Below are positions 119-21,080 of a DNA stretch of 52,328 nucleotides, piece by piece (the stretch's first letter is position 1; each line of letters begins with the position of its first letter). A program made the position numbers and the translations under genes. The stretch comes from Myxococcota bacterium (lineage in GTDB: Bacteria > Myxococcota > UBA727 > JAHDBA01). The notes beneath the pieces were generated by a model. It made no database searches and was not told where the DNA came from. It saw only the letters and a program-made list of their open reading frames with translations. The stretch spans positions 27,560 through 79,887 of the forward strand of contig JAHDBA010000010.1 in assembly GCA_020630615.1 (NCBI GenBank), read 5' to 3'.

Positions 119-1231
119 TCAGATGGAATCACAAACAACAAGCCTGTTTCGTCCTTGCTCTTTCGCACGATATAGGGCGCGATCCATCTCTTTGATGCAA
201 CGCTGTACAGGCGTTGATGTTGTTAACACTGCTGCACCAAAACTTAGGCTTAGCCTTCCAATTTGACTTTTCTGGTGGATGATATTTACACGTGCCAATG
301 CATCCTGAATTCGAGTAACGATATTCTTCAGGGTCGTTTGCGGTGCCGCTGTCAATACAATCATAAACTCCTCACCACCATATCGATAGACTTTGTCACA
401 GCAACGCAACGAATCTTTAAGCACACCTGCCACCGTAGTCAAAATCCTGTCACCCGCTGGATGGCCATAATTATCATTGTAAGCCTTGAAGTGATCCACA
501 TCCGCCAGAAGAAATGTATATTCACGACCGTAGCGTTCTTGTTGCGAAGAAAAGATACGCAAGTCTTCTTCCAACTGGCGACGGTTCCAAACCTTGGTCA
601 AAGCATCAATTCGAGATTCTTGATACAGTTCATGGCTACGTTCTCGCAGATCGTCTTCACGCTTTTGATGTTGACGTATTTTAGCACAATAGCGTGCAGC
701 GGATTCAAGCCGAGCCAGAAGCTCGTCCTTTTTCAAGGGTTTGCAGAGGTAGTCATCCGCACCCGAAGCGATAGCGTCCGAGACTGAGCACGCACCGGAT
801 AATGCAGTCATGAGGAGTATATAGGGCACCCTTGTTCGAGCACCCGAATTCAAATGTCGACATAGAGCAACCCCATCCATGCTTGGCATTAACCAATCTG
901 TTAGTAGAATATCGAAAGAGCATTGATTTAATACTTCTATCGCTTCTCTCCCGGAACCCACACAATGAATATCGTAAGGCGTATTTTTAAGAAGGTGTTG
1001 AATCAGCCTCCGTTGATCGTCATCGTCTTCGCAGACCAAGAGGCGCAGACGATCGACAGCTTCTTTTGAAGCTATTTCACGATGGAAGCGCATGTCAGAC
1101 TTCTTTTCTAAAAGCTCCCAAGCGCTTTTACGGATAATTGTGGGCTCTTCATCTTGCGAATGGTGTCGATTCCGATCTTTTGCATCCATCCAAAAACTAT
1201 GTTCATTCCTACTTTCGTTCTCCCCTGTCAT
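119..1231 (-). CDS. Response regulator with GGDEF output (diguanylate cyclase)
   Basis: This 370-residue protein should make c-di-GMP from two GTP in the cytoplasm under control of phosphorylation. A receiver domain spans roughly residues 62-180, with the acidic pocket CEDDDD, phospho-acceptor D112 in LLTDWLMPSMDG and the Lys of CKPL. A GGDEF domain follows (about 205-370) with intact GGEEF at 285-289 and an RxxD inhibitory-site motif (R276, D279) just upstream, so product inhibition is expected. The ATG at 1231 is preferred over 1237 because AAAGGG lies 9 bases from it. A sigma-54-type promoter lies just upstream, divergent from the PHP operon, so I infer membership of the H-NOX/sigma-54 regulon. 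The partner kinase is not proven. Confidence 0.93.
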   Translation of the reverse strand: MTGENESRNEHSFWMDAKDRNRHHSQDEEPTIIRKSAWELLEKKSDMRFHREIASKEAVDRLRLLVCEDDDDQRRLIQHLLKNTPYDIHCVGSGREAIEVLNQCSFDILLTDWLMPSMDGVALCRHLNSGARTRVPYILLMTALSGACSVSDAIASGADDYLCKPLKKDELLARLESAARYCAKIRQHQKREDDLRERSHELYQESRIDALTKVWNRRQLEEDLRIFSSQQERYGREYTFLLADVDHFKAYNDNYGHPAGDRILTTVAGVLKDSLRCCDKVYRYGGEEFMIVLTAAPQTTLKNIVTRIQDALARVNIIHQKSQIGRLSLSFGAAVLTTSTPVQRCIKEMDRALYRAKEQGRNRLVVCDSI

Positions 1232-1263
1232 ACGCATCCACCCTTTGAGTACGCTTCAATTCT

Positions 1264-1280
1264 TGCACGCGCCGTGCCAT
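1264..1280 (-). promoter_or_regulatory. Sigma-54 promoter for the diguanylate cyclase gene
   Basis: Read leftward the site is ATGGCACGGCGCGTGCA. The -24 element TGGCACG is perfect, the -12 element is GTGCA in place of TTGCA with the key GC kept, and the spacing fits YTGGCACG-N4-TTGCW. Transcription would start near 1253, giving a leader of about 20 bases that contains the ribosome-binding site. Confidence 0.6.
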
Positions 1281-1401
1281 CTTCATGGACATTCGAAAGG
1301 GAATGAAGTTCTTAAAAGTATTCGAAACTCGAACTCAAGTATCGTGGATCAACTCCAATGGACTTCAACGATACCAAATCAAAACACACCACGAGCCAAT
1401 A

Positions 1402-1418
1402 TGTTCCCAATTCGAACA
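1402..1418. promoter_or_regulatory. Palindromic candidate enhancer (UAS) for the sigma-54 activator
   Basis: TGTTC-N7-GAACA is a perfect inverted repeat lying about 95 bases upstream of the rightward -24 element and about 125 bases from the leftward one. The same TGTTC-N7-GAAC layout recurs at 10921 and 17021, each time upstream of sigma-54-like promoters. I infer it is the binding site of the regulator at 15526-16974. Confidence 0.6.
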
Positions 1419-1501: not shown

Positions 1502-1518
1502 CTGGCACGTTTCTCGCA
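1502..1518 (+). promoter_or_regulatory. Sigma-54 promoter for the PHP / exporter operon
   Basis: The site is CTGGCACGTTTCTCGCA. It matches YTGGCACG-N4-TTGCW except for one base (TCGC for TTGC). The predicted start near 1529 leaves a leader of about 27 bases before the ATG at 1556. Confidence 0.75.
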
Positions 1519-1555
1519 ACGCTCTTAAAGAAGCGCGCACACTATGGAGAGTTCA

Positions 1556-2377
1556 ATGTCTGATAAGTCCCTACATCGATACCCACTTCAACTTGACGAA
1601 GACTGGCATGTCCATTCAACATACTCTGACGGTAAAGGAACCTTGGAAGAAAATCTAAGTGCGGCAGAAGCGGCAGGACTGACACTTCTATGTTTTGTTG
1701 AACATGTCCGTAAAGATAGTGACTGGCTTGATGCTTACATTAAGCATTGTGCACATCTCAGACAGGGGAGTCCTCTTGAGATTAAGATTGGCGTCGAAGC
1801 GAAGTTTCAAGATGAATTCGGCACTCTGGATTGCCCAGAGCTTACCGATGAAATCGACTATGTTTTCGCTGCTGACCATCGCGTTCCTCTTGGGATGTCC
1901 TGTTACTGCCCCAAGGACGTGAAACAATGGATCGAGCAAGGAATGATCACTAAAGAGCGTGTGATCCTTGGAATCGTCAATGCCACCTGCGCCGCGATGA
2001 AGCGGTACAAAAATATTGTCATCGCGCACCTCTTCAGTATTTTACCCAAGCTCGGCATTCTCATTGAAGAAGTACGCCTTGAGCATCTCATGCGCATCGC
2101 GGAATGTGCACGTGAAACGAATACGCCGATAGAAGTCGATGAACGCTGGTGTGCTCCGGACATCCGTACCGCGTCCTTCCTCTATCTCCAAGGGGTTCAA
2201 CTTGTTGCCAGCACCGACAGTCACATCAGTCGACGTATCGGAAAATACCATCATGTCGCAAACGTCCATTCGGCGCTGAGTCGCTTTTCAAAAATGCACA
2301 GTTCACAGACTGTCGACGCCCGCTTTCACATCCAAGCGGATAATGACGCGAAAGAAACTCTTGTTCCTGCTGCGTAG
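1556..2377 (+). CDS. PHP-domain metal-dependent phosphoesterase
   Basis: This 273-residue cytoplasmic protein has the PHP (polymerase and histidinol phosphatase) fold. Visible metal-ligand motifs are HVHSTYSDG near the N-terminus, EHV, the acidic IGVEAK, FAADHR, an AH segment and a C-terminal STDSH. The family hydrolyses phosphate esters; some members are Tyr-phosphatases controlling capsule synthesis, which would fit this context, but the substrate cannot be read from the sequence. I chose the ATG at 1556 because GGAGAG lies at the right distance; an ATG at 1544 is in frame but lacks a site. It is the first gene of a sigma-54-driven operon and is followed directly by the exporter-like gene at 2378. 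Confidence 0.88.
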   Translation: MSDKSLHRYPLQLDEDWHVHSTYSDGKGTLEENLSAAEAAGLTLLCFVEHVRKDSDWLDAYIKHCAHLRQGSPLEIKIGVEAKFQDEFGTLDCPELTDEIDYVFAADHRVPLGMSCYCPKDVKQWIEQGMITKERVILGIVNATCAAMKRYKNIVIAHLFSILPKLGILIEEVRLEHLMRIAECARETNTPIEVDERWCAPDIRTASFLYLQGVQLVASTDSHISRRIGKYHHVANVHSALSRFSKMHSSQTVDARFHIQADNDAKETLVPAA

Positions 2378-3700
2378 TTGAATGTGAGTCGGTTGTCTTT
2401 TTTCACCTTTCAAGTGGGAGCGATGATGTTGAGTGCGACAAGTGTCTTCGCAACACACTCTTCAAGCAAAGTTAAAGTCGATGAGCATGTTGCTTGCAGG
2501 GAAGGTAAACCTGAGAGACACGATATGAATTCTCTGGCTGCACAGTCGATTGCATTGGGGATTGCGGGCAAAACATCACAGGCTCTGCTGAATCTCGATC
2601 GGGAGTTATGTATCGATGCAAATCATGATGCGATTCATAGACTTCGCGAACTCAACTCGCCAGAAGTGTCGATCGCATATTCCAGACTCTTACTTTGGAA
2701 TGGTGAGTTTCAACGTGCTCATTTCGCAGCAGACTCTTTCAGAAAAAGAAGCGACTCCAACTCGCGTGCAGCGATCGAGCTTTTGCTGATTGACGCAAAC
2801 GCTCTTGCTTCACTCGGACATCTTAAGAGAGCGATCTCCATGCTCGAGCAACACCCCGCAGCACGCCAGTCTCACCATGCTTCCAACAACGAACTTCGGG
2901 AAACACTTGTACGACTCCAACAAAGACCCTTTGCACAAATTAGTGCGGGGACTGGGTGGACTTCTTTTGCAGGTGAACATTTTGCAGAAACATTTGCTGC
3001 CGGAAAACTCTACGTCGGTGATCGACACACTCTCGATATAACCTTCCACATGGGCGCCCTGCCGACACAGCAAATTTCAGAGGGCGCTTCTAGAAGTTCA
3101 ATTGTACAAAGTGATATTCTGTATCGAGTGCGCCTACCCAAACAACTGACACTCGGTCTCGGCTTGGGATTTCAAAAAGAGAACAACACCAACGCCATTG
3201 CCGGCAGCCTGCGTATTCGACCCACTCTAGGCCTTGAGTGGAGCCCAACATCGATTGATCCACTTCGCCATAAAGCGAACCGAACCCATACGATGAACTT
3301 TATCTTGCGCATGCGACCGGGATTTGACTTGGAAGCGTTTCGTGAACTTTTCAATTTCCTGCGTGTCGATAAACGCTTTGGCAAGCATACCTTTGGTGTG
3401 CAAAGCTTTAGTTTTCTCGTATTCTCCGATCTCAAGGGCGGAGTTTCCGAAACCGAGCAGGCGTCAGTACATATCAACTCCATGCAGCATCTTACACTCT
3501 TCTCAAATTTGAGATCATGGTTAGCCTTCGAAATGTGGCTTGGTGCAGGCAACATCCAAACAAAGGCATTGGAGCACCTTAAAACGTCCGTACATTTCAG
3601 AGTCAACCCGGCGATATCAATAGGTCTTCATTTCGACACCAACCCAATAACACTGCAACGCTATAGTCTCAGTGCGGGTCTGGGTTGGAGTTTTCACTAA
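2378..3700 (+). CDS. Secreted TPR-like plus beta-barrel protein, possible polysaccharide exporter
   Basis: This 440-residue protein starts at a TTG immediately after the PHP stop codon. An N-terminal signal peptide ends at about SVFA (residue 25). Residues about 45-185 are helical with a repeat character like TPR units (for example SRLLLWNGEFQRAHFAADSF). Residues about 190-440 alternate hydrophobic and polar residues in short glycine-rich strands and end in GLGWSFH, as outer-membrane beta-barrels do. This TPR-then-barrel order is that of PgaA and BcsC, the exporters of synthase-dependent polysaccharides, but it is shorter. I infer an outer-membrane exporter; I recognise no specific family. 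It overlaps the next gene by one base (TAATG). Confidence 0.6.
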   Translation: MNVSRLSFFTFQVGAMMLSATSVFATHSSSKVKVDEHVACREGKPERHDMNSLAAQSIALGIAGKTSQALLNLDRELCIDANHDAIHRLRELNSPEVSIAYSRLLLWNGEFQRAHFAADSFRKRSDSNSRAAIELLLIDANALASLGHLKRAISMLEQHPAARQSHHASNNELRETLVRLQQRPFAQISAGTGWTSFAGEHFAETFAAGKLYVGDRHTLDITFHMGALPTQQISEGASRSSIVQSDILYRVRLPKQLTLGLGLGFQKENNTNAIAGSLRIRPTLGLEWSPTSIDPLRHKANRTHTMNFILRMRPGFDLEAFRELFNFLRVDKRFGKHTFGVQSFSFLVFSDLKGGVSETEQASVHINSMQHLTLFSNLRSWLAFEMWLGAGNIQTKALEHLKTSVHFRVNPAISIGLHFDTNPITLQRYSLSAGLGWSFH

Positions 3701-5901
3701 TGGAATCCTACCGAGACGCTTCTTCGAACGCCAACAAGCACTTCTATGGGCGGTTGGTCTTGGTACTCCTTCTTATGGGGTCGGTATGCGTGAACGCTTC
3801 AGAACACGAAGCCCACTCGCAACCCGTTCTCACAATGGAAGACTCGAGTGTAAACAACACTCCTTCGCCCCAGAGGCAAGTCACGATACTTTCCTCACTT
3901 GAAACGAAAAGGGTCTACGTTCGTCAACCTTGGTTCACGCCCACTGCGATGCGTATTCAAGTTCAATTGCTTGATCGTGAAGAAAGCCAAGACCTTCCCT
4001 CTGCTTTAGAGTCCTGGAGCATCGAACTCCGACACATCCCGAGCCGAACACTCAAGCAAGAAGGGCTTCACTCACGCACTTTTGAAATCACCCTGCCCCT
4101 TCTAGAGCAGGGATTTCATGGCATCGAACTTCGGCTGAAAGCAAATAAAATGGACCGATGCCTGCAGAAAAACATTGAGGTTAAGGTCGAGGTCGCATCG
4201 AAGCTTCTCGGTCCTTTGGATTCCGTAAGCGGGAAACCCAAGAGAGACTTCCATTGGTCTGAGATTCATCATCGTCTTGGCGCCAAGCAAAGGCTTCGAC
4301 TTAAAGTTGAAGGCCAATCAACACCACGACTTGCAAGCACGATCGTCGAACTTTCTGACAACTTTGATACGGCCTTTAGTACCTTAGAACTGGTGGACTC
4401 GTCTTCCCAAGCTGACATTGTTCTCACACTTAAGCGCACGAACTTTGTAGAACTCAGTCACAACAGTGCCACAGTTCTTGAATGGAAAGACGAAACAATG
4501 TTCATCCAGCTGTCCCCGGAATATCCGATGAACGACAAACGCGTTGCTCGGCATCTTACGAAAGCACCACAGATATTAAGCACTGCGACATTGAAATATT
4601 GCGGGTCACGTCCACGATGCATCGTGCCGAACTGGTTCCTCGCTTCGGCGAGCACAGAGTTGACTCCTGGCACACCACGAAAAGAGATCGCTGGGCCGAA
4701 GGTCTCAGATGTCACAACAAGTTCTCTCTCGATGAACCCACAAAACCCTAATGGCTATTACCTGGACGAGAGCATTCAAACACTTAAAGATGCCGGGTTT
4801 GAGAAGGGTTGGTCTATTGTCTCCCGACGTACACAAAAGATTCAATGGCAATGGCAACGTACATACGACTGGGTAGCACTCAGTCGATTTCAATATCACA
4901 TGAACATAATCAATTCGACCTCGAAAGACTTGAAGGGGCTCACGATAGTGCTCCGAGTCAACAAGGAAACAATCGAAATCTGGACACAGGACGATCTTTT
5001 GCATGGTCGCCAAGTACTCTCAACAGACTTGCCGGCTGGGTTGTCCAACGCGACCTTACTGGAATTTGAGCTCGAGGTACATTGGGGAGAACGAGAGGAG
5101 AGTGTTGCATGTACAGCTCAAGATCAAGATGCGCCTATCCTTCATATTTCATCGAACTCTGCACTTAAGATTCAACGTCGCGCACTTAATGCGAGCATGG
5201 GTCTTCTCGCTTCAAGTCGCCTCAAAGATGTTATGCCAACCACCCTTTACTACAATGAAGACACGCCCCTGTACGCGTACTTGCTTCTTGCGAAGATGAG
5301 CCGAGAACTACGTAAAAAAGGGTGGTCGTGGTCACCCGTGAATGCCGACACCTCACATCGTAGAATTGAGTTTTGCTTTCGGGGGGCTTATCCTCCAGAA
5401 GAGACACGTCGACTCCGGCGAAAATGTGAACTTCGGTCGCACCACCCTACCCTTGGAAAATTGGGCGTCCTCTTCGCAGAGCTTCACGTATCGGCAGGGC
5501 TCTGGAGGTTTGAAATCTTTCATACAGAAACACTGATGGCCGATAAGCTTTCGTTGAACAAGCTTAACAACCCACAACCATGCGGAGAACTTTTGCAAGG
5601 TTCGATAGGGAAAACAAGCACCGCATTTTGCCTGCAGGGTCAGTGGCACAACATTTCTCAACACCATGTCCTGAGACTTGAAGAACCGGTTCAAACTCGT
5701 ACTCTTCAGAGCAAGCAGGCGCTCGGTGGCCATCGAGAGGACGGTGTCACGATTCAAGGGAAAGCTGGCAGACTTCACAACCATATTCGAGTCTTTTGGT
5801 GGCTGGCACTGGTCCTCGCGGGTCTGGCATTTGCACGTTGGAGTTTGGGCCCATTCAAGCTCAGACCTTCTCGGCAAGCAGAGCGAAAAGGAGTACACTA
5901 A
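3700..5901 (+). CDS. Large periplasmic protein with C-terminal anchor, BcsB-like topology
   Basis: This 733-residue protein starts at the ATG overlapping the previous stop (TAATG), suggesting translational coupling; an in-frame TTG at 3685 is a weaker choice. A signal peptide covers about residues 1-34 (GRLVLVLLLMGSVCVNA). A long, mostly beta-rich periplasmic region follows, and a single membrane helix near the end (WWLALVLAGLAFARW) leaves a short basic cytoplasmic tail. That topology and size match BcsB-type co-polymerase subunits, and its neighbours support a role in polysaccharide synthesis. I do not see a diagnostic BcsB motif, so this is an analogy from layout. It contains a few Cys residues (KYCGSRPRC) that could form disulfides. 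Confidence 0.55.
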   Translation: MESYRDASSNANKHFYGRLVLVLLLMGSVCVNASEHEAHSQPVLTMEDSSVNNTPSPQRQVTILSSLETKRVYVRQPWFTPTAMRIQVQLLDREESQDLPSALESWSIELRHIPSRTLKQEGLHSRTFEITLPLLEQGFHGIELRLKANKMDRCLQKNIEVKVEVASKLLGPLDSVSGKPKRDFHWSEIHHRLGAKQRLRLKVEGQSTPRLASTIVELSDNFDTAFSTLELVDSSSQADIVLTLKRTNFVELSHNSATVLEWKDETMFIQLSPEYPMNDKRVARHLTKAPQILSTATLKYCGSRPRCIVPNWFLASASTELTPGTPRKEIAGPKVSDVTTSSLSMNPQNPNGYYLDESIQTLKDAGFEKGWSIVSRRTQKIQWQWQRTYDWVALSRFQYHMNIINSTSKDLKGLTIVLRVNKETIEIWTQDDLLHGRQVLSTDLPAGLSNATLLEFELEVHWGEREESVACTAQDQDAPILHISSNSALKIQRRALNASMGLLASSRLKDVMPTTLYYNEDTPLYAYLLLAKMSRELRKKGWSWSPVNADTSHRRIEFCFRGAYPPEETRRLRRKCELRSHHPTLGKLGVLFAELHVSAGLWRFEIFHTETLMADKLSLNKLNNPQPCGELLQGSIGKTSTAFCLQGQWHNISQHHVLRLEEPVQTRTLQSKQALGGHREDGVTIQGKAGRLHNHIRVFWWLALVLAGLAFARWSLGPFKLRPSRQAERKGVH

Positions 5902-5902
5902 A

Positions 5903-10690: not shown

Positions 10691-10726
10691 CGAAAACACT
10701 CCTTCTTGTTTTAGTATTGAAAATGT

Positions 10727-10743
10727 TTCAAGAGTCGTGCCAG
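10727..10743 (-). promoter_or_regulatory. Sigma-54-like promoter for the ATP-grasp/GT2 operon
   Basis: Read leftward the site is CTGGCACGACTCTTGAA. The -24 half is a perfect consensus, and the -12 half is TTGA instead of TTGC at the correct spacing. Losing the -12 C is unusual and may weaken the promoter. The predicted start near 10716 gives a leader of about 26 bases that includes the AAGGAG site. Confidence 0.5.
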
Positions 10744-10920: not shown

Positions 10921-10936
10921 TGTTCAACAACTGAAC
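10921..10936. promoter_or_regulatory. Palindromic candidate enhancer (UAS)
   Basis: TGTTC-N7-GAAC, with inner bases extending the symmetry (GTTCA-ACAAC-TGAAC). It lies about 160 bases upstream of the rightward -24 element and about 180 bases from the leftward one. It shares the layout of the sites at 1402 and 17021. Confidence 0.55.
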
Positions 10937-11092: not shown

Positions 11093-11109
11093 TTGGCATA
11101 CTCCTTGCT
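11093..11109 (+). promoter_or_regulatory. Sigma-54 promoter for the receiver-PIG-L gene
   Basis: The site TTGGCATACTCCTTGCT matches the -24 (TTGGCA) and -12 (TTGCT) elements of sigma-54 with exact spacing; only the two bases after TGGCA differ from the consensus. A start near 11120 gives a leader of about 34 bases before the ATG at 11154, containing AAAGGAG. Confidence 0.75.
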
Positions 11110-12272: not shown

Positions 12273-14758
12273 TTTTCTGCCAATGCTGCCCTCTCGAGTT
12301 GGTCTGCGAGGAGCGATAGCGTTTTGAGGCCATACCCACCACCACTCCCCTTGATGCGGTGACCGATGAGTCGGAGACCCGAGAAATCTTTATCTTGAAT
12401 CATCGCACCAAGCATCGGAAGCTCACCGATGCGTTTCTGAATATAGCCAGGGACAAGTTCTCGCAGCTCTGAATCAATCGCTCTAAGTTCGTACTCCAAA
12501 GGAGCGCTCACCACAAAATCTTGGGTGTTGCGTGCTTGCAGACACGCATCGCCAACATTGTGTCCACGTCTCATGAGACCCAATATCGATTCTTTTTTGA
12601 AGGGTTTGACAATACGTGACTCGAACCCAGCGGCTTCCAACTCTGTCTTTGCATCGTCACCAACTTCCCCTGTCAATGCATGTGCGCGACCGTCAAATCC
12701 TTCGGCTCGAAGCCCCTTCAAAAGGAGGTCACCTCGAGTTCCCCCCAGATGATAATCACAAAAAAGTACCTCAATTTCATGTTCTTGAACTACTTGATAC
12801 GCGCGACTCTCGTTTTGAGCGTGAAACACTTCGATGTCGTCTCGATCACGTGTCATAACATCAAAGAGAATATGAATATCTTCAGAGTCATCAACCAAAA
12901 GAACCTTTAAGGAGGTATCAAGGAGGCGTGCAAAGGTTTTCTCAAGCAGAGTCAAAGACACGGGCTTCGCTAAGAATGCGTCCATGCCTGCTCGAAGTGC
13001 TATGGATTGATCCTCCGCAAAAGCATTGGCACTCACACCAATTATCGGCAAAGGCCCATCGCTAAAACAATGGCCATTGGCTTCTTCACGGCGAACCCAA
13101 TGGGTCAAGGCGACTCCGTCTTGAATTGGCATCGAGATATCCGTCACAAGTGCACAGACGGGTTCTGATTTCAGGGTCGTTGAAGCTTCGGCACCATTGT
13201 TGGCGACGATAACATCATAACCCAAACGTTTGATGAATATGGAGAGCATGGTTTGGTTGTCAAAATCGTCCTCTGCCAAAAGCACACGTCTCAAGACCCT
13301 AACGCTCTTCCTCTCAACGTCCTCTTCTTGAGCGTTGACTGAATGTTTCTCCGGCGTGACGATTATTGTCCGCTCAGGGTTCTTGTGACCTAAGCCCTCA
13401 CCCATCGTTGCTAAATCTTTACGCCCCTTAAGAAGTTGATGCATTGAATCTCTTAGCTTTCTTCGGGTCAACGGCAAAGGCATGGACTGCCCTTGTGTCG
13501 TTTCAAGCGATGTGTTCGCCAAAGCGTCTTGCCTTGTGGTACTTTCAAGATCTCTGACGTACACGAAAGGCTTAACCAACAAATTCCCCTCATGCTCTTG
13601 AACCAAGAAACGATGGGTTGCATTTCCTTTCGTCACCTCGTGCCTTTGTATTCCTGCTTCGTGTTCACGAGAAGCATCGATGATATGGGCCCCCCAATAC
13701 CGATAGGTTTTGTCCAGCCACTCGGCAAGATGGACATCTGAAATATCAAACTCAATCTCTGTGTCTTGGAGAAAAAAGTTCTGAAGCTCTTTGTCGCGAG
13801 TGTCATCAAGCGAAGAAGACTCTTCGTTGCCCTCATCTGAACTCGGGCTGCTCTTAAGAAATGGCAGTGTGACTCGAAAACAGGCCCCTAAGCCAATCTC
13901 AGACTCAACCTCAATCGAGCCACCGAGCTTCTGAACGAGCTGATACGCAATACTCAACCCCAAGCCAGTGCCGGGAATTCCCGCATCACGATCGCGTTGA
14001 AGACGAGTAAAGCGTTCAAAGATAAGCTGATGGTCTTTCGCAGATATTCCTTGCCCGGTATCGCGCACTTCAAAAACAATTCTAGAGTGTGCTTCACCCA
14101 ACACCGTTTGCACACGCGCCATCACCTGCACTTTTCCAGCAATCGTGTACTTTAAAGCATTTCCAATCAAATTCTGCAGAACCTGCCGAACCCTTGTTCC
14201 ATCGGTCCACCATCGATGGCCAAGCTCTGGGGCTGGGTAGAAGGCAAAACATAGCTCGCGCTCATTGGCCAACCCTCCGTATAGCTCCGTCAAATCGTCG
14301 ATAATATTGAGGGGATCGCATTGTGAGTACTGAAGACTTAACTCCCCAGCATCGAGACGCGCAAACTCGAGACAATCCTCAATCTGACGTAAGAGAGAAT
14401 CGCCGTTGCGTTGAATGCGGCCACAGAGATGACGCCGCTCTTCAACATCGTCAATGTCTGCCAATAGATCTGCAAGTCCAACAATCGCACTCAAAGGAGT
14501 CCGCATTTCATGACTCATCATCGCCAGGAACTTGCTCTTGCTCTCATTGGAACTCTCTGCCTCTTCTTTGGCTTGCCGAAGATTCGCAGTGGTTCGAGTC
14601 ACTTCCTCTTCAAGATGCTCATTGCTACGAAGGAGCTCACGGTTCTTTTCATAGAGCTCTCGACTTTTTTTCTCCAGAAGTCGCTCTGCAGCCTTTCGGG
14701 CGTCGCGCTCACGTTTAATCGCGCGCTCATAGACTCGCACATCCGTGGCATCGCTCAC
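12188..14758 (-). CDS. Hybrid histidine kinase with two receivers and an HPt domain (H-NOX partner)
   Basis: This 856-residue soluble kinase has no membrane segment. An N-terminal coiled coil (about 10-75, including ERLLEKKSRELYEKN) is the type seen on H-NOX-associated kinases. A HisKA domain follows with H83 in MMSHEMRTPL, then an ATPase domain with DTGQGIS and GTGLGLS boxes. Receiver 1 starts near residue 488 (TDISMPIQDG), receiver 2 near 615 (FCDYHLGG), and the C-terminal HPt carries HRIKGSGGGYG. The GTG start follows the H-NOX stop with no gap. I infer that the H-NOX protein controls its activity and that the HPt passes phosphate to the three separate response regulators nearby, as in the Shewanella HnoK network. 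Confidence 0.93.
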   Translation of the reverse strand: MSDATDVRVYERAIKRERDARKAAERLLEKKSRELYEKNRELLRSNEHLEEEVTRTTANLRQAKEEAESSNESKSKFLAMMSHEMRTPLSAIVGLADLLADIDDVEERRHLCGRIQRNGDSLLRQIEDCLEFARLDAGELSLQYSQCDPLNIIDDLTELYGGLANERELCFAFYPAPELGHRWWTDGTRVRQVLQNLIGNALKYTIAGKVQVMARVQTVLGEAHSRIVFEVRDTGQGISAKDHQLIFERFTRLQRDRDAGIPGTGLGLSIAYQLVQKLGGSIEVESEIGLGACFRVTLPFLKSSPSSDEGNEESSSLDDTRDKELQNFFLQDTEIEFDISDVHLAEWLDKTYRYWGAHIIDASREHEAGIQRHEVTKGNATHRFLVQEHEGNLLVKPFVYVRDLESTTRQDALANTSLETTQGQSMPLPLTRRKLRDSMHQLLKGRKDLATMGEGLGHKNPERTIIVTPEKHSVNAQEEDVERKSVRVLRRVLLAEDDFDNQTMLSIFIKRLGYDVIVANNGAEASTTLKSEPVCALVTDISMPIQDGVALTHWVRREEANGHCFSDGPLPIIGVSANAFAEDQSIALRAGMDAFLAKPVSLTLLEKTFARLLDTSLKVLLVDDSEDIHILFDVMTRDRDDIEVFHAQNESRAYQVVQEHEIEVLFCDYHLGGTRGDLLLKGLRAEGFDGRAHALTGEVGDDAKTELEAAGFESRIVKPFKKESILGLMRRGHNVGDACLQARNTQDFVVSAPLEYELRAIDSELRELVPGYIQKRIGELPMLGAMIQDKDFSGLRLIGHRIKGSGGGYGLKTLSLLADQLERAALAENQAAALESAESMSAYLKECETLVSSLFE

Positions 14759-15307
14759 TTAAGCAGCCTCACGAACTCTCTGTATTCGAAACTCAACATT
14801 CGTTCCAGAATCGTCTTTCAATGCTCGTGTGGCCACTACACATTTTTGCCCATAATGTTTCGAGCAGCCTTCGATCAAACCACGAGCAAGATCACTCATT
14901 GCTCGAGGTGATTCGTAAATCATAATCAAATCATCACCATCGTAACGTGTCTGAAATTTCGGTAGCTCTGCGTCTGGGTATAGCTTCTTCACTTCAACAT
15001 GAATCGTGCCATCCAAAGCCTCTAAAAAATGCAAAGGCCCTCGGTAGGGCGCTACAGCTTCAGGAAAGGAGCGTGCCAATGCTCCAAAAAGGTGATCACC
15101 AAAAGCAAAAAGTAAATCTGGGATACTCGTGTCTGCGCGTTTGGATAGGGAAACAACCATCTTCACAAGATCTGCACAAGGGTAGGTACCCACCGATGTG
15201 AAACCTACCTCAGCAAGACCTGCATCCTGCAGAAGCTGATCCACCATGACCAGACCATGCCCTTCCTCCACCATTTCTAAAAACTCGGTAAAGACAACTC
15301 CTTTCAT
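14759..15307 (-). CDS. H-NOX haem-based nitric oxide sensor
   Basis: This 182-residue cytoplasmic protein has the haem NO/O2-binding fold. The family opening MKGVVF is at the start, the proximal haem ligand is H103 (TIHVEVKKLYP), and the haem propionate clamp Y131-x-S133-x-R135 is intact in YESPR. The position matching the O2-stabilising distal Tyr140 of thermophilic H-NOX is Leu, which predicts NO rather than O2 selectivity. The ATG at 15307 is chosen because AAGGAG lies five bases upstream and the family starts MKG; a GTG at 15313 has no room for a site. It is directly followed by its hybrid kinase and divergent from the sigma-54 regulator. Confidence 0.96.
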   Translation of the reverse strand: MKGVVFTEFLEMVEEGHGLVMVDQLLQDAGLAEVGFTSVGTYPCADLVKMVVSLSKRADTSIPDLLFAFGDHLFGALARSFPEAVAPYRGPLHFLEALDGTIHVEVKKLYPDAELPKFQTRYDGDDLIMIYESPRAMSDLARGLIEGCSKHYGQKCVVATRALKDDSGTNVEFRIQRVREAA

Positions 15308-15525
15308 GGCCACTCCTTGCTTGAGTTTAGATTAACATCTTGTCGATACAAACATCCATAGCTCCTTGAGGTGTCTCAAATTGAACACCAATCAAAGGTT
15401 TATGACAAAAGTGTAAACTTCGACGACAATGAGAGTATGACTCTTCGCACCAGAGATAAGACACCATTTCGGCGCAAGTCGTATCGAGAACGTAAAGGTG
15501 TGACGCCAGAGACAAGGAAGTCGAA

Positions 15526-16974
15526 GTGAGTAAAACTACCCCTACGACTGCAGACCGGTCGCTTTTTGTCGTGGATGACGACCCAGACATTTGTGCGCTC
15601 CTTGAACACTGGCTTCGCGATTTGTACGCATACCGCTCTTTTGCATCAAGCACTCTGCTCTATGACGCTATGAAAAACACATCGCCCAGTGCAATCTGTC
15701 TTGATTTGAATCTTGAAGGTGAAAGCGGTTTGGATGTTCTCTCAAAAATTAAGTCACGACATCCACACATCCCTGTCATCATGATTACAGCAGAGAAGGA
15801 TCTCCAAAAAGCCTTGGAGTGTGTACAAGCTGGAGCGCTGGACTACTTAACGAAACCCTTAACACGCGAGAGCGTGCTTCAGACAATACGGATGGCGACA
15901 CAATCGATCATGCCCTTCAGCCAGCATAGCAATACAAACTCAACACTCGAGCTACCCGCGGGCCTCATCGCAGAATCACCGACAATGGTTTCGGCTCTAC
16001 GAAAGGTCATAAAAATAGCCTCCTCTGATATTTCCGTGGTTTTAAGAGGAGAAACCGGTTCGGGGAAAGAAAGAATTGCGCAAACACTTCATGAGGCGAG
16101 CCCGAGAAACGACAAACCCTTCATCGCTCTCAACTGTGCTGCCATCGCAGACGGAATTCAAGACTCGCTTCTCTTCGGTCATGAACGAGGTGCATTTTCT
16201 GGAGCGACACACACCCATAAAGGTTTTTTTGAAGAGGCCGATGGCGGGACACTTTTTTTGGATGAAGTGGCCGAACTGAACCTTGATGTGCAAGCAAAAC
16301 TTTTGCGTGTATTGCAAGAACAATGCTTTCAACGTGTCGGCGGTCGACACGTGTACCAAAGCGACTTTCGAATCGTTGCAGCTTCGCATAAAGCGCTAGC
16401 AGACGAGGTCGAAGCTGGACGTTTTCGTGAAGACCTCATGTATCGACTGAATGTTGTCGAGATTCAAATACCCGCGCTTCGAGAACGCCCTGAAGATATC
16501 GACCCTCTCATCGATCACTTTATCACAAAATACACTGACTCCACCGCACCCAAACTTGCAATCATCACGCGTGCACTTCTTAATACTTACACTTGGCCCG
16601 GCAATATTCGGGAACTACAGAATACGATTCAAGAAATATGCGTTCTCTACGGTGGTCAGCTCATAACACCAAAGCACCTCCCCACTGCAATTCAACGTGA
16701 GCTCTTAGCAGCTCAACACGAAGGCAATATAGACGCCCAGCAAGTCAGTGCTGCCACTGAAGCGCCACTTCAGCGTAAGCCCGACGACTCTAAGCTCGAT
16801 GTTGAAGCATGCTTGAAAAAAGGGTGGACGCTCGAAGACCTGGAAGCCTGGGGGATCCGAGTCATGCTGGAACATGTAAACGGGAACATTTCTGAACTTA
16901 CCCGCCGTCTTGGAATTGGGCGGACGACACTTTACCGTAAACTCAAAGATTATGGCTTACGCAACGACCTCTAG
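15526..16974 (+). CDS. NtrC-family sigma-54-dependent response regulator
   Basis: This 482-residue activator has a receiver (about residues 8-125; VDDDPD, phospho-acceptor in ICLDLNL, Lys in TKPL), a central AAA+ domain (about 145-385) and a C-terminal Fis-type helix-turn-helix (NISELTRRLGIGRTTLYRKL). The AAA+ part has Walker A GETGSGKE, Walker B GGTLFLDEV and GAFSGA, the sigma-54 contact loop usually written GAFTGA. The start is GTG with AAGGAAG upstream. It is divergent from H-NOX/kinase. I infer it drives the nearby -24/-12 promoters after phosphorylation by the H-NOX pathway, binding TGTTC-N7-GAAC sites. Confidence 0.96.
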   Translation: MSKTTPTTADRSLFVVDDDPDICALLEHWLRDLYAYRSFASSTLLYDAMKNTSPSAICLDLNLEGESGLDVLSKIKSRHPHIPVIMITAEKDLQKALECVQAGALDYLTKPLTRESVLQTIRMATQSIMPFSQHSNTNSTLELPAGLIAESPTMVSALRKVIKIASSDISVVLRGETGSGKERIAQTLHEASPRNDKPFIALNCAAIADGIQDSLLFGHERGAFSGATHTHKGFFEEADGGTLFLDEVAELNLDVQAKLLRVLQEQCFQRVGGRHVYQSDFRIVAASHKALADEVEAGRFREDLMYRLNVVEIQIPALRERPEDIDPLIDHFITKYTDSTAPKLAIITRALLNTYTWPGNIRELQNTIQEICVLYGGQLITPKHLPTAIQRELLAAQHEGNIDAQQVSAATEAPLQRKPDDSKLDVEACLKKGWTLEDLEAWGIRVMLEHVNGNISELTRRLGIGRTTLYRKLKDYGLRNDL

Positions 16975-17020: not shown

Positions 17021-17037
17021 TGTTCGTATTTTGAACA
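17021..17037. promoter_or_regulatory. Palindromic candidate enhancer (UAS)
   Basis: TGTTC-N7-GAACA, the same layout as at 1402. It sits about 75-90 bases upstream of the -24 element of the promoter at 17110, a typical enhancer distance. Confidence 0.55.
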
Positions 17038-17109: not shown

Positions 17110-17126
17110 CTGGCATAGAAATTGCA
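17110..17126 (+). promoter_or_regulatory. Sigma-54 promoter for the 1308-residue surface protein
   Basis: CTGGCATAGAAATTGCA has both consensus halves (CTGGCA and TTGCA) at the right spacing. The predicted start near 17137 precedes AAAGGAG and the ATG at 17154. Confidence 0.8.
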
Positions 17127-17153: not shown

Positions 17154-20100
17154 ATGAAGCGTGATGTTTGGATACGAAATAAGATCCCTTTCAATCTCAA
17201 CACGAACGTCTATCGATTTCATAGGCGCCCAAAGTGGGTACAATGGTTTCTCATGGCAACTCTTGTTGCATTCCTTAGGTCTGAGACGCTCGATGCTTCC
17301 GGCGATGCCGGAACCCAATTCAATATCTTCGTCCCTGGCAATAACTCTCATACGTCTCGTCGAAGTATCGTCGTCATTACGAATGTCTCCTCGGACGGTA
17401 ACATCATTAACATTATCGATGACGATCAAGACGGTGATAATGATGAGAGTGTCAGCGGGATTACTCTCGACCGTGGTTCAAGCTACATTCTAAAGATTGC
17501 CGAGGGTGCAGTTAATGATGATCTTGGAGGCAAGAATGACGGTGACTTCCTGAAAATTAGTGCAACGACACCTGTTATCGTGCAGAGTGTAACAACATCG
17601 AGCTGGCAACATGATTGGATTCCGTCTGCAGATGGTGGCGGACGCGGGCTAAACTTTTTCGCATATTCACCACCAACCTCGGGGTCGGTCTCGGACATCA
17701 ATGTGTTCGCGTATGAAGATGACACACGCGTCCGAATTTTTGAGATTACAGAAAGTCCTCAGACAACAAGTGGTATTGCACAGGTCAACCTTGATGATTC
17801 CCGCCCCATCATCGATACAACTCTCGATTTCGGTGAAGATCTAGTCACGCGTTCGAATGGCATTGGTCTTGATATTTTAAAACCAGGACACAGCTACTGG
17901 GTCAACGCTTCGCGAGGCGTTACGGCTCAGATTGGCCAACTCGGCGCACTCAAGGGTAACAATCGGGGACGTGATGGTGGCGGGTATGTTCCCAGTGTTA
18001 ATGGTTCAAGCGCAGGCGATCTCTATTTCTTTTCAATACCGCATGAGCCCGGTCGGACGAGCGAAAAAGAGCTGCGGGTTGTATGCTTTGACGACAACAC
18101 TCAAGTCTCGCTTTTGGGAGCCGATCGCTCAACTCCCACATGGACCTTAATTGACCAAAGCACAGTACAAAGTGGTGGCCATGTTGACTACGTTGGTGCG
18201 ACGAACTCTTTGTTTGCAAATCTCGATCTCTATCAACTTCGAATTACGCCGGCGTATCACCGCTGCACTGTGTTTGAAGGGAACTGGCTTGAAACCGGAC
18301 GCGTCGGAACCTCAGATTACGCAAGTGGCGTCGCAAGTCGCGATGGTGAAAATATAGGGACGGAGTTTGTAACCTACCTTGGGCCTCCGGGGAAACAAGA
18401 AAACGTTGTCAATCCAAGTGGCGAATCTACAAATCGTTCAACACTCAGCGATGGCTATGCATCACATGTCTATATTTATGGCACTGAAGATAACACCAGC
18501 TTTACGGTCCGTGATAGCGACACCTTAGGTAGCTTAATTGAGCACAGTGCTCTAGTGAACGCTGACGAATACTACGATTTTGTCTTGACCAAGTCTGAAT
18601 ACGAAAGCTTTAAAGCCATCGGGACTCTGCCCTATCTTCATGTGGAATCTGACAAGCCAGTGATGCTAATGACCGGTAACTTCAACGACAATTGGCTTGC
18701 CTACTTTCATGCAACATCGCCCATTCCACCGAGTGTTCAAATTGAAGCGAGCGTTACCAACATTACTGGCATTAATGAAAGAAGCATACTGACACTGTCA
18801 TGCGATCCAAAGTTTGAGCAATATGAACGTGTGGAAATGACCGTACACTTACCCGAAGGGCTCGCAAGTATCGACCCGAGTCATACCTCGACCATTTCAT
18901 TTGACTCAACAGGCTCTGTTTCAGGCTCTCCCTTTACAAAATCGATAGAAGTTAAACGTACATGCTCAGAGTGTGCAGTTGAAGATGTTCAGGTAGAATT
19001 GGTCTGCAGCGGTGAGCAAAGTCGCGGCAATGGCGTATCAACAGCTTTCACTCAACTCGAGCTCCCCTTAAACGCTGGCCCTGAAATTGATCTTTTTCAA
19101 GTCAAGGATGACCCCGGCTACGATGACAATAACCCCAATGTTGAACTTTCTTGGAATACAACAGCCATGGTCCCGGGTGAGTCAACTTACGTCGTTAAAC
19201 GCAGCACGGGTGATCCCAATGATTATGACAATGCGACAAGCATCGGGTCAGGAGCTTGCGCATCATCGACTTGTCCAACCACGCTCAGTGACCCCTATGA
19301 TCTTCACTACGAAGTCACACGCTTCTATTGGCTTGAAATCACGACTTCTGGCAAGACTCTCTCTGCTGGTCCACTCGCAATCGCTACAAGTTCAGGAGCT
19401 TCAAGTGGCGGCAACTCAGGTCTTGAGTCCAATGGAAGACTTGCGGCCAAACTTGCGCGACGCGAGATTTCTCGTTCGATGGATATCGCTCGATGGCAAG
19501 AAATTACACTTGGACGCGGGCAACAAACTCTACAGAGTACCGAGGACACGCACATCATGTTCAACACCTCGGGCGCATCACAGTCAATGCTCGTTAATTC
19601 GTCCGGTAGTACTGCAGCCCCTCTTTTCTCAACATTGCTTCCTGAAATTGGCCCGTGGTCATCCCACGCTGTCGAGGTGAGCCCGAACGACCTTAAAGTA
19701 CTTACCAACGCTAGCGAAGTTCTATCGTTCGACTATCGAAGTGGTGAAAAACTCGTTGCTTCGGCATTGGTAATCGAGAGCACAGGAGAAGTATACGATC
19801 ACTCGAAAACCGAATGTGATCGAGCAAAAGGTTCATCGTTAGATGACATTCGGGTTCTTGACTTTGATAGGACACAACTCATGAGAAGCTCCTCGAACAA
19901 CATTCGTGAACAAAAGGGAGAGCACTTCATAACCTTTAAGCTCTATCTCGAGGACGAACACATCGCCCTTTACCAGTATTTCGATAGGAGAAGATATCCA
20001 ATCGTGGGCCAAGGTGTGAAAGTGCTGAACATTCAGGTTTGGTCTGCATACGAGGGGGGGGCATCCTATATCGCGCAGGCAATTCTTGATTCTCTACCGA

Positions 20101-21080
20101 ACTCAACCACGTTCAATGTTGGAGAACTACCCGCATTGCACCTTCAGAAGGCACATCAACTTGGTGCAACGTTTTCGCTTTCGACACGGTCAACATTAAA
20201 TGCGAGCCAAGGTCATGATATTTCTGCACGTATATATACGCTCATGGAATCCGGAGAAGTCCTCCTAAGTGAGCGTGAAGTCGAAGTTCAAGGTCACAAA
20301 GGTGGCCTCTCATGGACACAGCAAGACGCTCTCGATGCAAGTATCGAGCTTCTCAATGACAGAGGTGAAGTCCTCGATCGTGTGTGGGTATCCGATGGTG
20401 CCTGGGCTCAATTTGACGATTCAATTTTTGGTGGTGCGACACTCGCAACAACATCCTTAAATCAATCTTGTTATGCGGTGGCACCTGATGCAGATTCTCA
20501 AGATCTCCATCTCTCGGGCTGTGCAGCATTCGATGGAACTATCGATGCTTTCGGCGGTGTCGCGCGCTACCTGGGTGGAGGTGCACACAGCTTCGATATT
20601 GGACAATATCAAGCTATAAATTTTCAACTTGAAGCCGAGCAAGACGTGGAAGTATGCATCGAAGGCCTACGTAAATCTCCAGATGACTCGCAAGGACGAA
20701 CATGTCGTAGAATTATTGGCTCTCCAACCCCACAAATGATGTCCTTGTCTCTTGATCAACTTCGCAAAGATGAAGGTGAGGATATGATCCGATACGCGAA
20801 CCTCATTTCATTTGTGTCACACAGTCCCTCTCGAAGCTCAATCGCAGTCGACAGGTTGAGTTTTTCAAAGCGCTTTGACTCGAATACACGTGCCAAGCTG
20901 TCAAACTACAACCCGGAAGCGCTCGAGCTTAGGGAAAGCGAGGTGGCAGAACTTTCGAGTGACACACCAAGTTGTACTCAGCAGTCTTCACCGGCACATT
21001 ATCTATCCTACCTTGCGTTACTCTGCTTCCTTATGATCTTTAAGCGGCAAGACCGTGGAGCGTTGCTCGACGAGGAGTGA
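17154..21080 (+). CDS. Giant secreted surface protein with C-terminal Cys/TM/basic tail
   Basis: This 1308-residue protein has an N-terminal signal region (hydrophobic stretch about residues 31-42 after a basic lead). The first 540 residues are beta-rich, Asp/Gly/Ser-rich repeats, loosely like IgGFc-binding-type adhesins. A fibronectin-III-like segment sits near residues 645-760. The end reads PSCTQQ, then a hydrophobic helix and KRQDR, resembling a MYXO-CTERM-type sorting tail. AAAGGAG precedes the ATG. The gene has its own strong sigma-54 promoter and a strong terminator, so it is a single-gene unit of the regulon. I infer a surface or matrix adhesin; no enzyme motif was seen. Confidence 0.85.
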   Translation: MKRDVWIRNKIPFNLNTNVYRFHRRPKWVQWFLMATLVAFLRSETLDASGDAGTQFNIFVPGNNSHTSRRSIVVITNVSSDGNIINIIDDDQDGDNDESVSGITLDRGSSYILKIAEGAVNDDLGGKNDGDFLKISATTPVIVQSVTTSSWQHDWIPSADGGGRGLNFFAYSPPTSGSVSDINVFAYEDDTRVRIFEITESPQTTSGIAQVNLDDSRPIIDTTLDFGEDLVTRSNGIGLDILKPGHSYWVNASRGVTAQIGQLGALKGNNRGRDGGGYVPSVNGSSAGDLYFFSIPHEPGRTSEKELRVVCFDDNTQVSLLGADRSTPTWTLIDQSTVQSGGHVDYVGATNSLFANLDLYQLRITPAYHRCTVFEGNWLETGRVGTSDYASGVASRDGENIGTEFVTYLGPPGKQENVVNPSGESTNRSTLSDGYASHVYIYGTEDNTSFTVRDSDTLGSLIEHSALVNADEYYDFVLTKSEYESFKAIGTLPYLHVESDKPVMLMTGNFNDNWLAYFHATSPIPPSVQIEASVTNITGINERSILTLSCDPKFEQYERVEMTVHLPEGLASIDPSHTSTISFDSTGSVSGSPFTKSIEVKRTCSECAVEDVQVELVCSGEQSRGNGVSTAFTQLELPLNAGPEIDLFQVKDDPGYDDNNPNVELSWNTTAMVPGESTYVVKRSTGDPNDYDNATSIGSGACASSTCPTTLSDPYDLHYEVTRFYWLEITTSGKTLSAGPLAIATSSGASSGGNSGLESNGRLAAKLARREISRSMDIARWQEITLGRGQQTLQSTEDTHIMFNTSGASQSMLVNSSGSTAAPLFSTLLPEIGPWSSHAVEVSPNDLKVLTNASEVLSFDYRSGEKLVASALVIESTGEVYDHSKTECDRAKGSSLDDIRVLDFDRTQLMRSSSNNIREQKGEHFITFKLYLEDEHIALYQYFDRRRYPIVGQGVKVLNIQVWSAYEGGASYIAQAILDSLPNSTTFNVGELPALHLQKAHQLGATFSLSTRSTLNASQGHDISARIYTLMESGEVLLSEREVEVQGHKGGLSWTQQDALDASIELLNDRGEVLDRVWVSDGAWAQFDDSIFGGATLATTSLNQSCYAVAPDADSQDLHLSGCAAFDGTIDAFGGVARYLGGGAHSFDIGQYQAINFQLEAEQDVEVCIEGLRKSPDDSQGRTCRRIIGSPTPQMMSLSLDQLRKDEGEDMIRYANLISFVSHSPSRSSIAVDRLSFSKRFDSNTRAKLSNYNPEALELRESEVAELSSDTPSCTQQSSPAHYLSYLALLCFLMIFKRQDRGALLDEE

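What the first reader, a model, noticed from the sequence alone, without database searches (positions are those of the whole stretch)
119..21080. A nitric-oxide/sigma-54 phosphorelay that appears to command a split exopolysaccharide system
An H-NOX sensor, a hybrid kinase with HPt, a sigma-54 activator, a REC-GGDEF cyclase and a REC-PIG-L deacetylase lie within 17 kb. They are interleaved with a processive GT2, ATP-grasp ligase, PHP phosphoesterase, TPR-barrel exporter-like protein, BcsB-like protein and two small membrane proteins. Sequence shows the domains and promoters; known H-NOX/HnoK networks branch through an HPt to several regulators; the unified polysaccharide role is inference. The mix of synthase, deacetylase and ligase does not match the Bcs, Pga, Alg or Pel operons I know.
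Basis: partly seen in the sequence, partly recalled or inferred. Interest (0 to 1): 0.93.

Follow-up and report, generated by a model that had tools for sequence, protein, structure and literature searches.

The report
Nitric-oxide switch for slime-sugar genes
A 21-kilobase block of bacterial DNA, much of it shared with a second genus of the same family, holds a gas-sensor gene, a relay kinase and sugar-polymer genes behind matching predicted control sites, and is predicted to let nitric oxide switch both the making and the chemical finishing of a likely surface polysaccharide through a little-studied deacetylase that carries its own predicted phosphate switch.

Summary
The observation mostly holds. 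H-NOX, a hybrid kinase with HPt, a sigma-54 activator, REC-GGDEF and REC-PIG-L lie at 119-16974 with GT2, ATP-grasp and PHP genes; 'BcsB-like' and 'TPR-barrel' stay weak. The neighbourhood is conserved: in G001, another genus of the family, seven of these genes recur on two contigs that each carry part of one gene. New here: all five sigma-54-type sites with at most one mismatch in the window lie 25-44 bp before cluster starts, each with a GTTC-N7-GAAC palindrome starting 89-194 bp upstream; 0 of 33 sampled control sites have one. In G001 the palindrome serves two of four sites, not those before REC-PIG-L and GT2. The wiring (NO, H-NOX, kinase, HPt, sigma-54 activator, polysaccharide) is known in Vibrio fischeri. 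What differs: one locus, an ATP-grasp/PIG-L/GT2 triad also found in five relatives and an Arthrobacter plasmid, and a receiver fused to the deacetylase. The 120 best REC-PIG-L relatives all carry both domains; five text searches listed no study of one. Phosphotransfer, NO response, polymer and export are untested. New variant of a known kind.

The parts
119..1237 (-). REC-GGDEF response regulator / diguanylate cyclase
   Evidence: PF00990 1.7e-43, PF00072 6.4e-22; sigma-54-type site 26 bp before its start
1264..1279 (-). sigma-54-type site TGGCACGGCGCGTGCA (1 mismatch) before REC-GGDEF
1403..1417 (.). predicted enhancer GTTC-N7-GAAC between the divergent REC-GGDEF and PHP promoters
1503..1518 (+). 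sigma-54-type site TGGCACGTTTCTCGCA (1 mismatch) before the PHP operon
1544..2377 (+). PHP-domain phosphoesterase
   Evidence: PF02811 2.1e-9
2378..3700 (+). possible TPR plus outer-membrane barrel protein (weak)
   Evidence: TPR_19 0.0081, below cut-off; no homologue but itself
3685..5901 (+). large protein with N-terminal and C-terminal hydrophobic segments; BcsB-like by place only
   Evidence: no family match; hydrophobic segments; G001 protein in a similar place matches PF03170
5903..6079 (+). 58-aa protein with one hydrophobic segment
6076..6414 (+). 112-aa protein with one C-terminal hydrophobic segment
   Evidence: weak C-terminal match to the G001 168-aa protein, E 0.004
8163..9659 (-). 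membrane GT2 synthase
   Evidence: PF13641 5.8e-24; nearest NCBIfam PgaC_IcaA 135.6 bits, cut-off 422.3; 62% identical in G001
9656..10692 (-). ATP-grasp ligase (start taken at the ATG at 10692)
   Evidence: PF15632 1e-31; 43% identical over 308 aa in G001
10727..10742 (-). sigma-54-type site TGGCACGACTCTTGAA (1 mismatch) before ATP-grasp-GT2
10922..10936 (.). predicted enhancer GTTC-N7-GAAC between the ATP-grasp-GT2 and REC-PIG-L promoters
11094..11109 (+). sigma-54-type site TGGCATACTCCTTGCT (no mismatch) before REC-PIG-L
11154..12272 (+). REC-PIG-L: receiver domain fused to a PIG-L/LmbE de-N-acetylase
   Evidence: PF02585 3.9e-26, PF00072 8.2e-19; model pLDDT 87.9
12188..14758 (-). hybrid histidine kinase HisKA-HATPase-REC-REC-Hpt
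   Evidence: in G001 38% over 297 aa of the kinase part and 25% over 345 aa of the rest
14759..15313 (-). H-NOX haem NO sensor
   Evidence: PF07700 1.8e-32; 44% identical in G001
15526..16974 (+). REC-AAA(sigma-54)-Fis activator
   Evidence: PF00158 1.1e-63; G001 counterpart 40.6% beside the surface-protein gene
17022..17036 (.). predicted enhancer GTTC-N7-GAAC before the surface-protein gene
17111..17126 (+). sigma-54-type site TGGCATAGAAATTGCA (no mismatch) before the surface-protein gene
17154..21080 (+). 1308-aa IgGFc-binding-like, probably surface-exposed protein
   Evidence: PF17517 3.5e-5, below cut-off; G001 counterpart 38% over 1197 aa

Best explanation
This is one locus in which an H-NOX sensor and its hybrid kinase are predicted to read nitric oxide and pass phosphate to three receiver-domain proteins encoded beside them (a sigma-54 activator, a REC-PIG-L deacetylase and a REC-GGDEF cyclase), which would together control the transcription, the de-N-acetylation and the c-di-GMP tuning of a likely amino-sugar exopolysaccharide. 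Shown: the domains, the neighbourhood conserved in a second genus, five sigma-54-type sites in front of the REC-GGDEF, PHP, ATP-grasp-GT2, REC-PIG-L and surface-protein genes, and one palindrome type upstream of all five. Inferred: the activator at 15526 binds the palindrome; the HPt feeds all three receivers; phosphorylation of the receiver switches the deacetylase; GT2 makes the chain, PIG-L bares amines on it or on its precursor, and the ATP-grasp enzyme ligates a group, perhaps to those amines. By analogy with V. fischeri, NO-bound H-NOX would hold the kinase off and so keep the system off.
For: Domains. G001 contig C12 carries, within 15 kb, H-NOX (44% identical), the kinase (38% over 297 aa, 25% over a further 345), REC-PIG-L (36%), ATP-grasp (43%) and GT2 (62%), and a BcsB-family protein; its left end encodes the start of the surface-protein gene, and another contig, C98, carries most of that gene followed by the activator counterpart (38% and 40.6%, the best of six G001 activators compared). 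All 5 of 5 sigma-54-type sites with at most one mismatch in the 52-kb window lie 25-44 bp before a start; 2.9% of strand positions lie 5-80 bp before one. Two of the six perfect sites of the 2.83-Mb genome are here. GTTC-N7-GAAC occurs exactly 3 times in the window, upstream of these 5 sites, against 0 of 33 distinct control sites sampled elsewhere in the genome; 7 of 3000 shuffles of the three regions share any 4-base palindrome, 0 of 3000 one with two or more G/C per half. It is the only exact copy in seven fetched G001 stretches (68.2 kb), between the H-NOX and surface-protein sigma-54 sites. REC-PIG-L: receiver D74 and K124 and PIG-L H155, D157, D158, H250, D252 and H253 are invariant in 56 of 56 aligned. 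Precedent for the wiring.
Against: No phosphotransfer, NO-binding or sugar data. In G001 only 2 of 4 sigma-54 sites have the palindrome: the perfect sites before REC-PIG-L and ATP-grasp-GT2 lack it. The palindrome was first seen by eye, and alone it is not rare in the genome (39 strand matches of TGTTC-N7-GAAC against 30 for the reversed pattern). Looser sigma-54 counts are not enriched. The window's BcsB and barrel labels fail sequence tests. PHP was not found in G001 (a 70% complete genome, search without positive control). A REC-GGDEF counterpart in G001 was not sought. The GT2 is below every NCBIfam cut-off shown. The five triad relatives have no PF03170 match, so export there is unknown.
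Confidence: 0.6

Rival explanations
1. Two neighbours rather than one circuit: the H-NOX/kinase pair regulates only c-di-GMP (REC-GGDEF) or its own targets, while the sigma-54 activator answers another kinase and runs the polysaccharide genes.
For: Known H-NOX pathways often end in c-di-GMP enzymes (review passages). No sigma-54-type site with at most one mismatch lies before the window's H-NOX-kinase pair. Cross-phosphorylation was not tested.
Against: H-NOX, kinase and activator stay neighbours in both genera, in G001 across a contig break; in G001 H-NOX has a sigma-54 site and shares its palindrome with the surface-protein gene.
Confidence: 0.25
2. The PIG-L/ATP-grasp/GT2 triad makes something other than an exported polysaccharide, for example a glycolipid or an amino-sugar small molecule, and the neighbours 2378-6414 are unrelated.
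For: The nearest NCBIfam of the PIG-L part is the bacillithiol deacetylase BshB1; fold matches include BshB, MshB, chitobiose and antibiotic deacetylases; the export labels are weak.
Against: The GT2 is nearest to PgaC/IcaA, with CelA and NodC also among its matches, and has several hydrophobic segments; the G001 cluster holds a BcsB-family protein; E. coli pairs PIG-L and GT2 with the barrel gene yaiO.
Confidence: 0.25
3. A plain Syp-type NO/biofilm circuit; the REC domain on the deacetylase is a docking or dimerising part without enzymatic control.
For: The V. fischeri circuit has the same order of parts.
Against: The phospho-acceptor Asp and the switch Lys (roles recalled) are invariant in 56 of 56 aligned REC-PIG-L proteins, which points to a working receiver.
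Confidence: 0.3

Closest known systems
Vibrio fischeri HnoX-HahK-SypF(HPt)-SypG/SypE control of the syp polysaccharide genes
   Same: NO sensor and kinase in one operon, HPt step, sigma-54 activator with an upstream site, polysaccharide output, and a second response regulator acting below transcription (SypE) (passages).
   Different: There the HPt steps lie in other proteins, SypF and LuxU, and SypE acts on the activity of SypA. Here an HPt is in the H-NOX-linked kinase itself, all sits in one locus, and the second regulator is a receiver fused to a PIG-L deacetylase. Homology of the synthesis genes to syp was not tested.
E. coli yaiS-yaiP-yaiO cluster
   Same: PIG-L deacetylase, GT2 and an outer-membrane barrel gene close together (the names yaiS and yaiP are recalled or taken from another record, only yaiO is written in this one); PIG-L 32.7% (E 2e-29) and part of GT2 26.6% (E 4e-9) similar to the window proteins.
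   Different: No REC domain match and no ATP-grasp; an acetyltransferase instead; no match to the window's 2378-3700 protein at E 0.1.
PNAG synthesis (Pga/Ica)
   Same: GT2 nearest to PgaC/IcaA; a deacetylase in the set.
   Different: GT2 at 135.6 bits against a cut-off of 422.3; the deacetylase is PIG-L without a hydrophobic segment, not a PgaB-type enzyme (PgaB recalled).
PIG-L/ATP-grasp/GT2 triads in G084, G085, G086, G089, G090 and Arthrobacter sp. StoSoilB13
   Same: The three enzymes lie within about 5 kb.
   Different: The PIG-L part is fused to TPRs in G090 and has no REC match in Arthrobacter; the other four were not resolved; no BcsB-family match in the five genomes.
Response regulators with enzymatic output (e.g. 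PorX)
   Same: A receiver fused to an enzyme (PorX output recalled); PorX appears in the fold search through its receiver.
   Different: The enzyme is a PIG-L deacetylase; by their titles none of the 50 listed PDB matches is a REC-PIG-L fusion.

Membership tests
H-NOX (PF07700) | HNOB domain over the curated cut-off | tested here: met
   112.9 bits, cut-off 25.5
H-NOX (PF07700) | proximal His and YxSxR haem motif (motif recalled) | tested here: met
   read in the translation...TIHVEVKKLYPDAELP......YESPR...
H-NOX (PF07700) | binds haem and NO | not testable with these tools
   needs protein
Syp-type NO-HPt-sigma-54 polysaccharide circuit | H-NOX and hybrid kinase adjacent | tested here: met
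   window and G001
Syp-type NO-HPt-sigma-54 polysaccharide circuit | HPt domain in the relay | tested here: met
   25.8 bits, cut-off 24.6; 36.4 bits in G001
Syp-type NO-HPt-sigma-54 polysaccharide circuit | REC-type sigma-54 activator and RpoN | tested here: met
   the AAA domain reads GAFSGA where the recalled motif is GAFTGA
Syp-type NO-HPt-sigma-54 polysaccharide circuit | sigma-54 promoters with an upstream activator site before the synthesis genes | tested here: inconclusive
   5 of 5 in the window; in G001 the two synthesis promoters lack the palindrome
Syp-type NO-HPt-sigma-54 polysaccharide circuit | phosphotransfer to the activator; NO-dependence | not testable with these tools
   needs biochemistry
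Syp-type NO-HPt-sigma-54 polysaccharide circuit | synthesis genes homologous to syp | not tested
   no syp sequences were compared
REC-PIG-L proteins | receiver plus PIG-L domain with acceptor Asp and conserved His/Asp motifs | tested here: met
PNAG synthase PgaC/IcaA (TIGR03937) | score over the equivalog cut-off | tested here: not met
   135.6 against 422.3 bits
Cellulose synthesis (Bcs) | CelA equivalog cut-off (TIGR03030) | tested here: not met
   84.1 against 699.1 bits
Cellulose synthesis (Bcs) | BcsB domain PF03170 | tested here: inconclusive
   no match in the window's genome; G001 protein E 2.6e-10, 39.7 bits against 21
NosP (G001 FIST protein) | NF041558 cut-off | tested here: not met
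   75.3 against 450 bits, though its only NCBIfam match at E<=1e-5

The most novel reading that the evidence does not exclude
Nitric oxide sets the charge of the bacterial matrix in real time: the phosphorelay both opens transcription and, through the receiver fused to PIG-L, switches the enzyme that bares amines on an amino-sugar polymer or its precursor, and the ATP-grasp enzyme then caps those amines with an amino acid, giving an aminoacylated polysaccharide not yet described. REC-PIG-L proteins across many phyla would be a general class of phosphate-switched glycan deacetylases.
Probability: 0.17. Interest if true: 0.85.

Novelty: new variant of a known kind. Interest (0 to 1): 0.62.

Why it matters
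It gives one locus in which NO sensing, a phosphorelay, sigma-54 transcription, c-di-GMP and an enzyme of glycan finishing can be tested together, with named promoters and a predicted enhancer. If the receiver does switch the deacetylase, the REC-PIG-L family (the 120 best of 1595 hits all carry both domains), for which I found no study in five text searches, gains a function: phosphate-controlled sugar deacetylation. It also points to a recurrent ATP-grasp/PIG-L/GT2 triad whose product I could not find named.

Tried and rejected
Structure of the 'BcsB-like' protein from a two-row alignment: mean pLDDT 31.7, not used. Homologues of the BcsB pair: none at E<=0.001; of the barrel candidate: only itself. 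PDB sequence searches with the G001 BcsB protein and the pair: none at E<=0.1. Single-sequence HHalign of the window proteins against the G001 BcsB, barrel-end and 168-aa proteins: no support. The genome-contig scan with REC-PIG-L gave three PIG-L loci; tblastn with the window and G001 proteins found no ATP-grasp or GT2 in them, so the wider distribution of REC-PIG-L neighbourhoods is unknown. Plasmid scans gave no record covering 80% of the window protein, one covering 82% of another REC-PIG-L (H21, not inspected), and distant ATP-grasp hits; of these, only the Arthrobacter record and one E. coli record were opened. Looser counts are not significant: 36 sigma-54 sites with up to two mismatches against 28.9 expected in the window, 11 against 9.5 in L024; one-mismatch palindromes 28 against 27.3 in the window and 11 against 6.7 in L024 (10 of 200 shuffles reach it). 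Only the strict sites and their places carry weight. A single TTGAACA half-site as enhancer was dropped for the full palindrome. One search counted 31 control sites, two of them twice; one search recounts 29 distinct, or 33 with further loci, of the 116 such sites outside the cluster implied. No tRNA and no Rfam match in the window. A PNAG, cellulose or NosP identity was rejected on cut-offs. That no study of a REC-PIG-L protein was found rests on searches of a CC-licensed library; one search listed 12 of 1,380 papers with two of three terms; I saw these listings only (among them single-domain PIG-L papers on C. difficile Pig-L and P. aeruginosa DnpA) and opened none of them.
Full report
What is there. 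The window is G000:C43:27560-79887 of a 2.83-Mb assembly in 48 contigs, 93.5% complete; its name was not given and I did not determine it. PHP, GT2 and ATP-grasp are also as described. In the translations I read the GT2 residues VDDAS, DAD, AED and QRLRW, which I recall as marks of processive GT2 enzymes, and YESPR in H-NOX. The weak labels are 2378-3700 ('TPR barrel') and 3685-5901 ('BcsB-like'): neither has a convincing family match or homologue, and the AlphaFold model of the latter is useless.

Is the neighbourhood conserved? G001, another genus of the same family (70% complete), has on one 15-kb contig H-NOX (44% identical), the kinase (38% over 297 aa, 25% over a further 345 aa), REC-PIG-L (36%), ATP-grasp (43% over 308 aa) and GT2 (62%). 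That contig also has a FIST protein and a second kinase after the H-NOX kinase, a BcsB-family protein (E 2.6e-10) and, at its edge, the C-terminal 161 aa of a protein that looks barrel-like by eye but has no NCBIfam match. The other contig edge encodes the start of the surface-protein gene, divergent from H-NOX; a second contig carries most of that gene followed by the activator counterpart (38% over 1197 aa; 40.6% over 483 aa, the best of six G001 activators compared). So seven gene types recur: H-NOX, kinase, REC-PIG-L, ATP-grasp, GT2, activator and surface protein; that the two contigs adjoin is inferred from the split gene. PHP was not found in G001 (without a positive control). A GT2 this similar occurs in 2 of 195 genomes of the phylum, these two; seven others match at 30-35%.

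Sigma-54 control. The genome has one RpoN match and 10 PF00158 matches, of which 5 cover nearly the whole domain. With the consensus TGGCAYRNNNNTTGCW, the window has five sites with at most one mismatch, all within the first 17.2 kb, 26, 25, 34, 44 and 27 bp before the starts of REC-GGDEF, PHP, ATP-grasp, REC-PIG-L and the surface protein. Against a list of 40 genes that I drew up, 2.9% of strand positions lie 5-80 bp before a start, so five of five by chance is about 2e-8, given five sites. The whole genome has 121 such sites against 78 for the reversed pattern, and six perfect ones, two of them here. With two mismatches allowed the window is not enriched (36 against 28.9 expected). In G001 two perfect sites precede the unit that ends in REC-PIG-L and ATP-grasp-GT2, and one-mismatch sites precede H-NOX and the surface protein.

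A shared enhancer-like site. Reading the intergenic regions, I saw GTTC-N7-GAAC. It occurs exactly three times in the window, and each of the five sigma-54 sites has one starting 89-194 bp upstream; two of the palindromes serve divergent pairs. None of 33 distinct control sigma-54 sites sampled elsewhere in the genome, the other four perfect ones included, has one within 400 bp upstream (which corrects the 31 for double counting; one of the 33 had less than 400 bp of upstream DNA). Because it was found by eye, I asked how often shuffled versions of the three regions share any 4-base palindrome with gap 0-10: 7 of 3000, and 0 of 3000 with two or more G/C per half. Genome-wide, TGTTC-N7-GAAC gives 39 strand matches against 30 for the reversed pattern, so the motif alone is not rare; of the 30 loci inspected only the two that are the window's own site at 1403 pair it with a sigma-54 site at 40-250 bp; six further matches outside the window were not inspected. 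In seven G001 stretches (68.2 kb) the single exact copy lies between the H-NOX and surface-protein sigma-54 sites. Against the idea, the two perfect G001 sites before REC-PIG-L and ATP-grasp-GT2 lack it. I read it as the likely binding site of the activator at 15526; that is inference.

REC-PIG-L. A two-row profile found 1595 hits at E<=0.001 among the 7997 candidates scored; the 120 listed all carry both domains, and the sources name, among others, Gemmatimonadota, Myxococcota, Acidobacteriota, actinomycetes and Proteobacteria. In 56 aligned sequences (of the 120 listed) the receiver's D74 and K124 and the PIG-L residues H155, D157, D158, H250, D252 and H253 are invariant. The model is confident (mean pLDDT 87.9, pTM 0.71); its best PDB matches are PIG-L deacetylases and, separately, receivers, and by their titles no REC-PIG-L fusion is among the 50 listed. 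Within the phylum, 2 of 195 genomes have the REC-PIG-L form with both halves matched at E<=1e-40; six more match in the PIG-L half only (at most 10 candidates scored per genome).

The synthesis triad. ATP-grasp, PIG-L and GT2 lie together in five relatives of the same phylum (G084, G085, G086, G089, G090) and on an Arthrobacter plasmid; in G069 the ATP-grasp and PIG-L share a contig and the GT2 is on another. None of the five has a PF03170 match. An E. coli record shows PIG-L, GT2 and yaiO genes together, without ATP-grasp. The GT2 is nearest to PgaC/IcaA but far below its cut-off. That the product is an amino-sugar polymer, that PIG-L bares amines on it, and that ATP-grasp ligates to those amines are inferences from family knowledge.

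Compared with what is known. In V. fischeri, NO-bound HnoX restrains HahK, which acts through the HPt of SypF (and through LuxU) on SypG, while SypE acts below transcription (abstract, model legend and discussion passages of PMC12369376); SypG activates sigma-54-dependent syp transcription and has a reported upstream site (passages of PMC10162802). A review notes H-NOX paths ending in c-di-GMP enzymes and FIST genes near H-NOX genes (passages of PMC8738867), and a comparative study links sigma-54 to genes of the cell exterior, exopolysaccharides among them (passages of PMC3162934). So the logic is known; the single-locus build, the enzyme triad and the receiver-fused deacetylase are the variant. 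Five text searches aimed at it (listings only) showed no study of a REC-PIG-L protein, and two none of a polysaccharide system with ATP-grasp and PIG-L or a deacetylase beyond one cell-wall review listed; most subscription papers are not in that library.

Verdict. Checking changed the control count (31 to 33 distinct) and one membership row (enhancer, to inconclusive); the odds stay as first written.

Noticed in passing
L024:3296-5301 (G001 contig C12): A FIST-domain protein whose only NCBIfam match at E<=1e-5 is NosP (75.3 bits, cut-off 450) and a second short kinase follow the H-NOX kinase of G001, so two NO-sensor types may feed one relay; no FIST match was found in G000.
   Followed up: partly
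window:6443-8143: A carbonic anhydrase, a winged-helix regulator and a DUF2141 protein lie inside the cluster without sigma-54 sites of at most one mismatch and have no match in the G001 contig.
   Followed up: partly
window:17154-21080: The 1308-aa surface-protein candidate ends in Cys, a hydrophobic stretch and basic residues, by eye like a MYXO-CTERM-type sorting tail (label recalled; no family match).
   Followed up: no
G000:C46:209879-211795 (L105): Two perfect divergent sigma-54-type sites flank another sigma-54 activator gene; their downstream genes were not identified, and no GTTC-N7-GAAC lies in the stretch.
   Followed up: partly
G000:C48:524-1950 (L117): A sigma-54 activator gene is split into two reading frames.
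   Followed up: no
NZ_CP134951.1:59624-60571 (hit H64, Halobaculum plasmid): An ATP-grasp match whose annotated features include a PIG-L deacetylase, so the ATP-grasp/PIG-L pairing may reach archaea.
   Followed up: no
window:21227-24992: Two POT/PTR2-type peptide transporters, with a thioesterase gene between them, directly beside the cluster.
   Followed up: no
window:44116-48753: A 1545-aa protein with seven matched DUF4215 stretches.
   Followed up: no
window:50119-51201: A chalcone/stilbene-synthase-type (type III) polyketide synthase gene.
   Followed up: no
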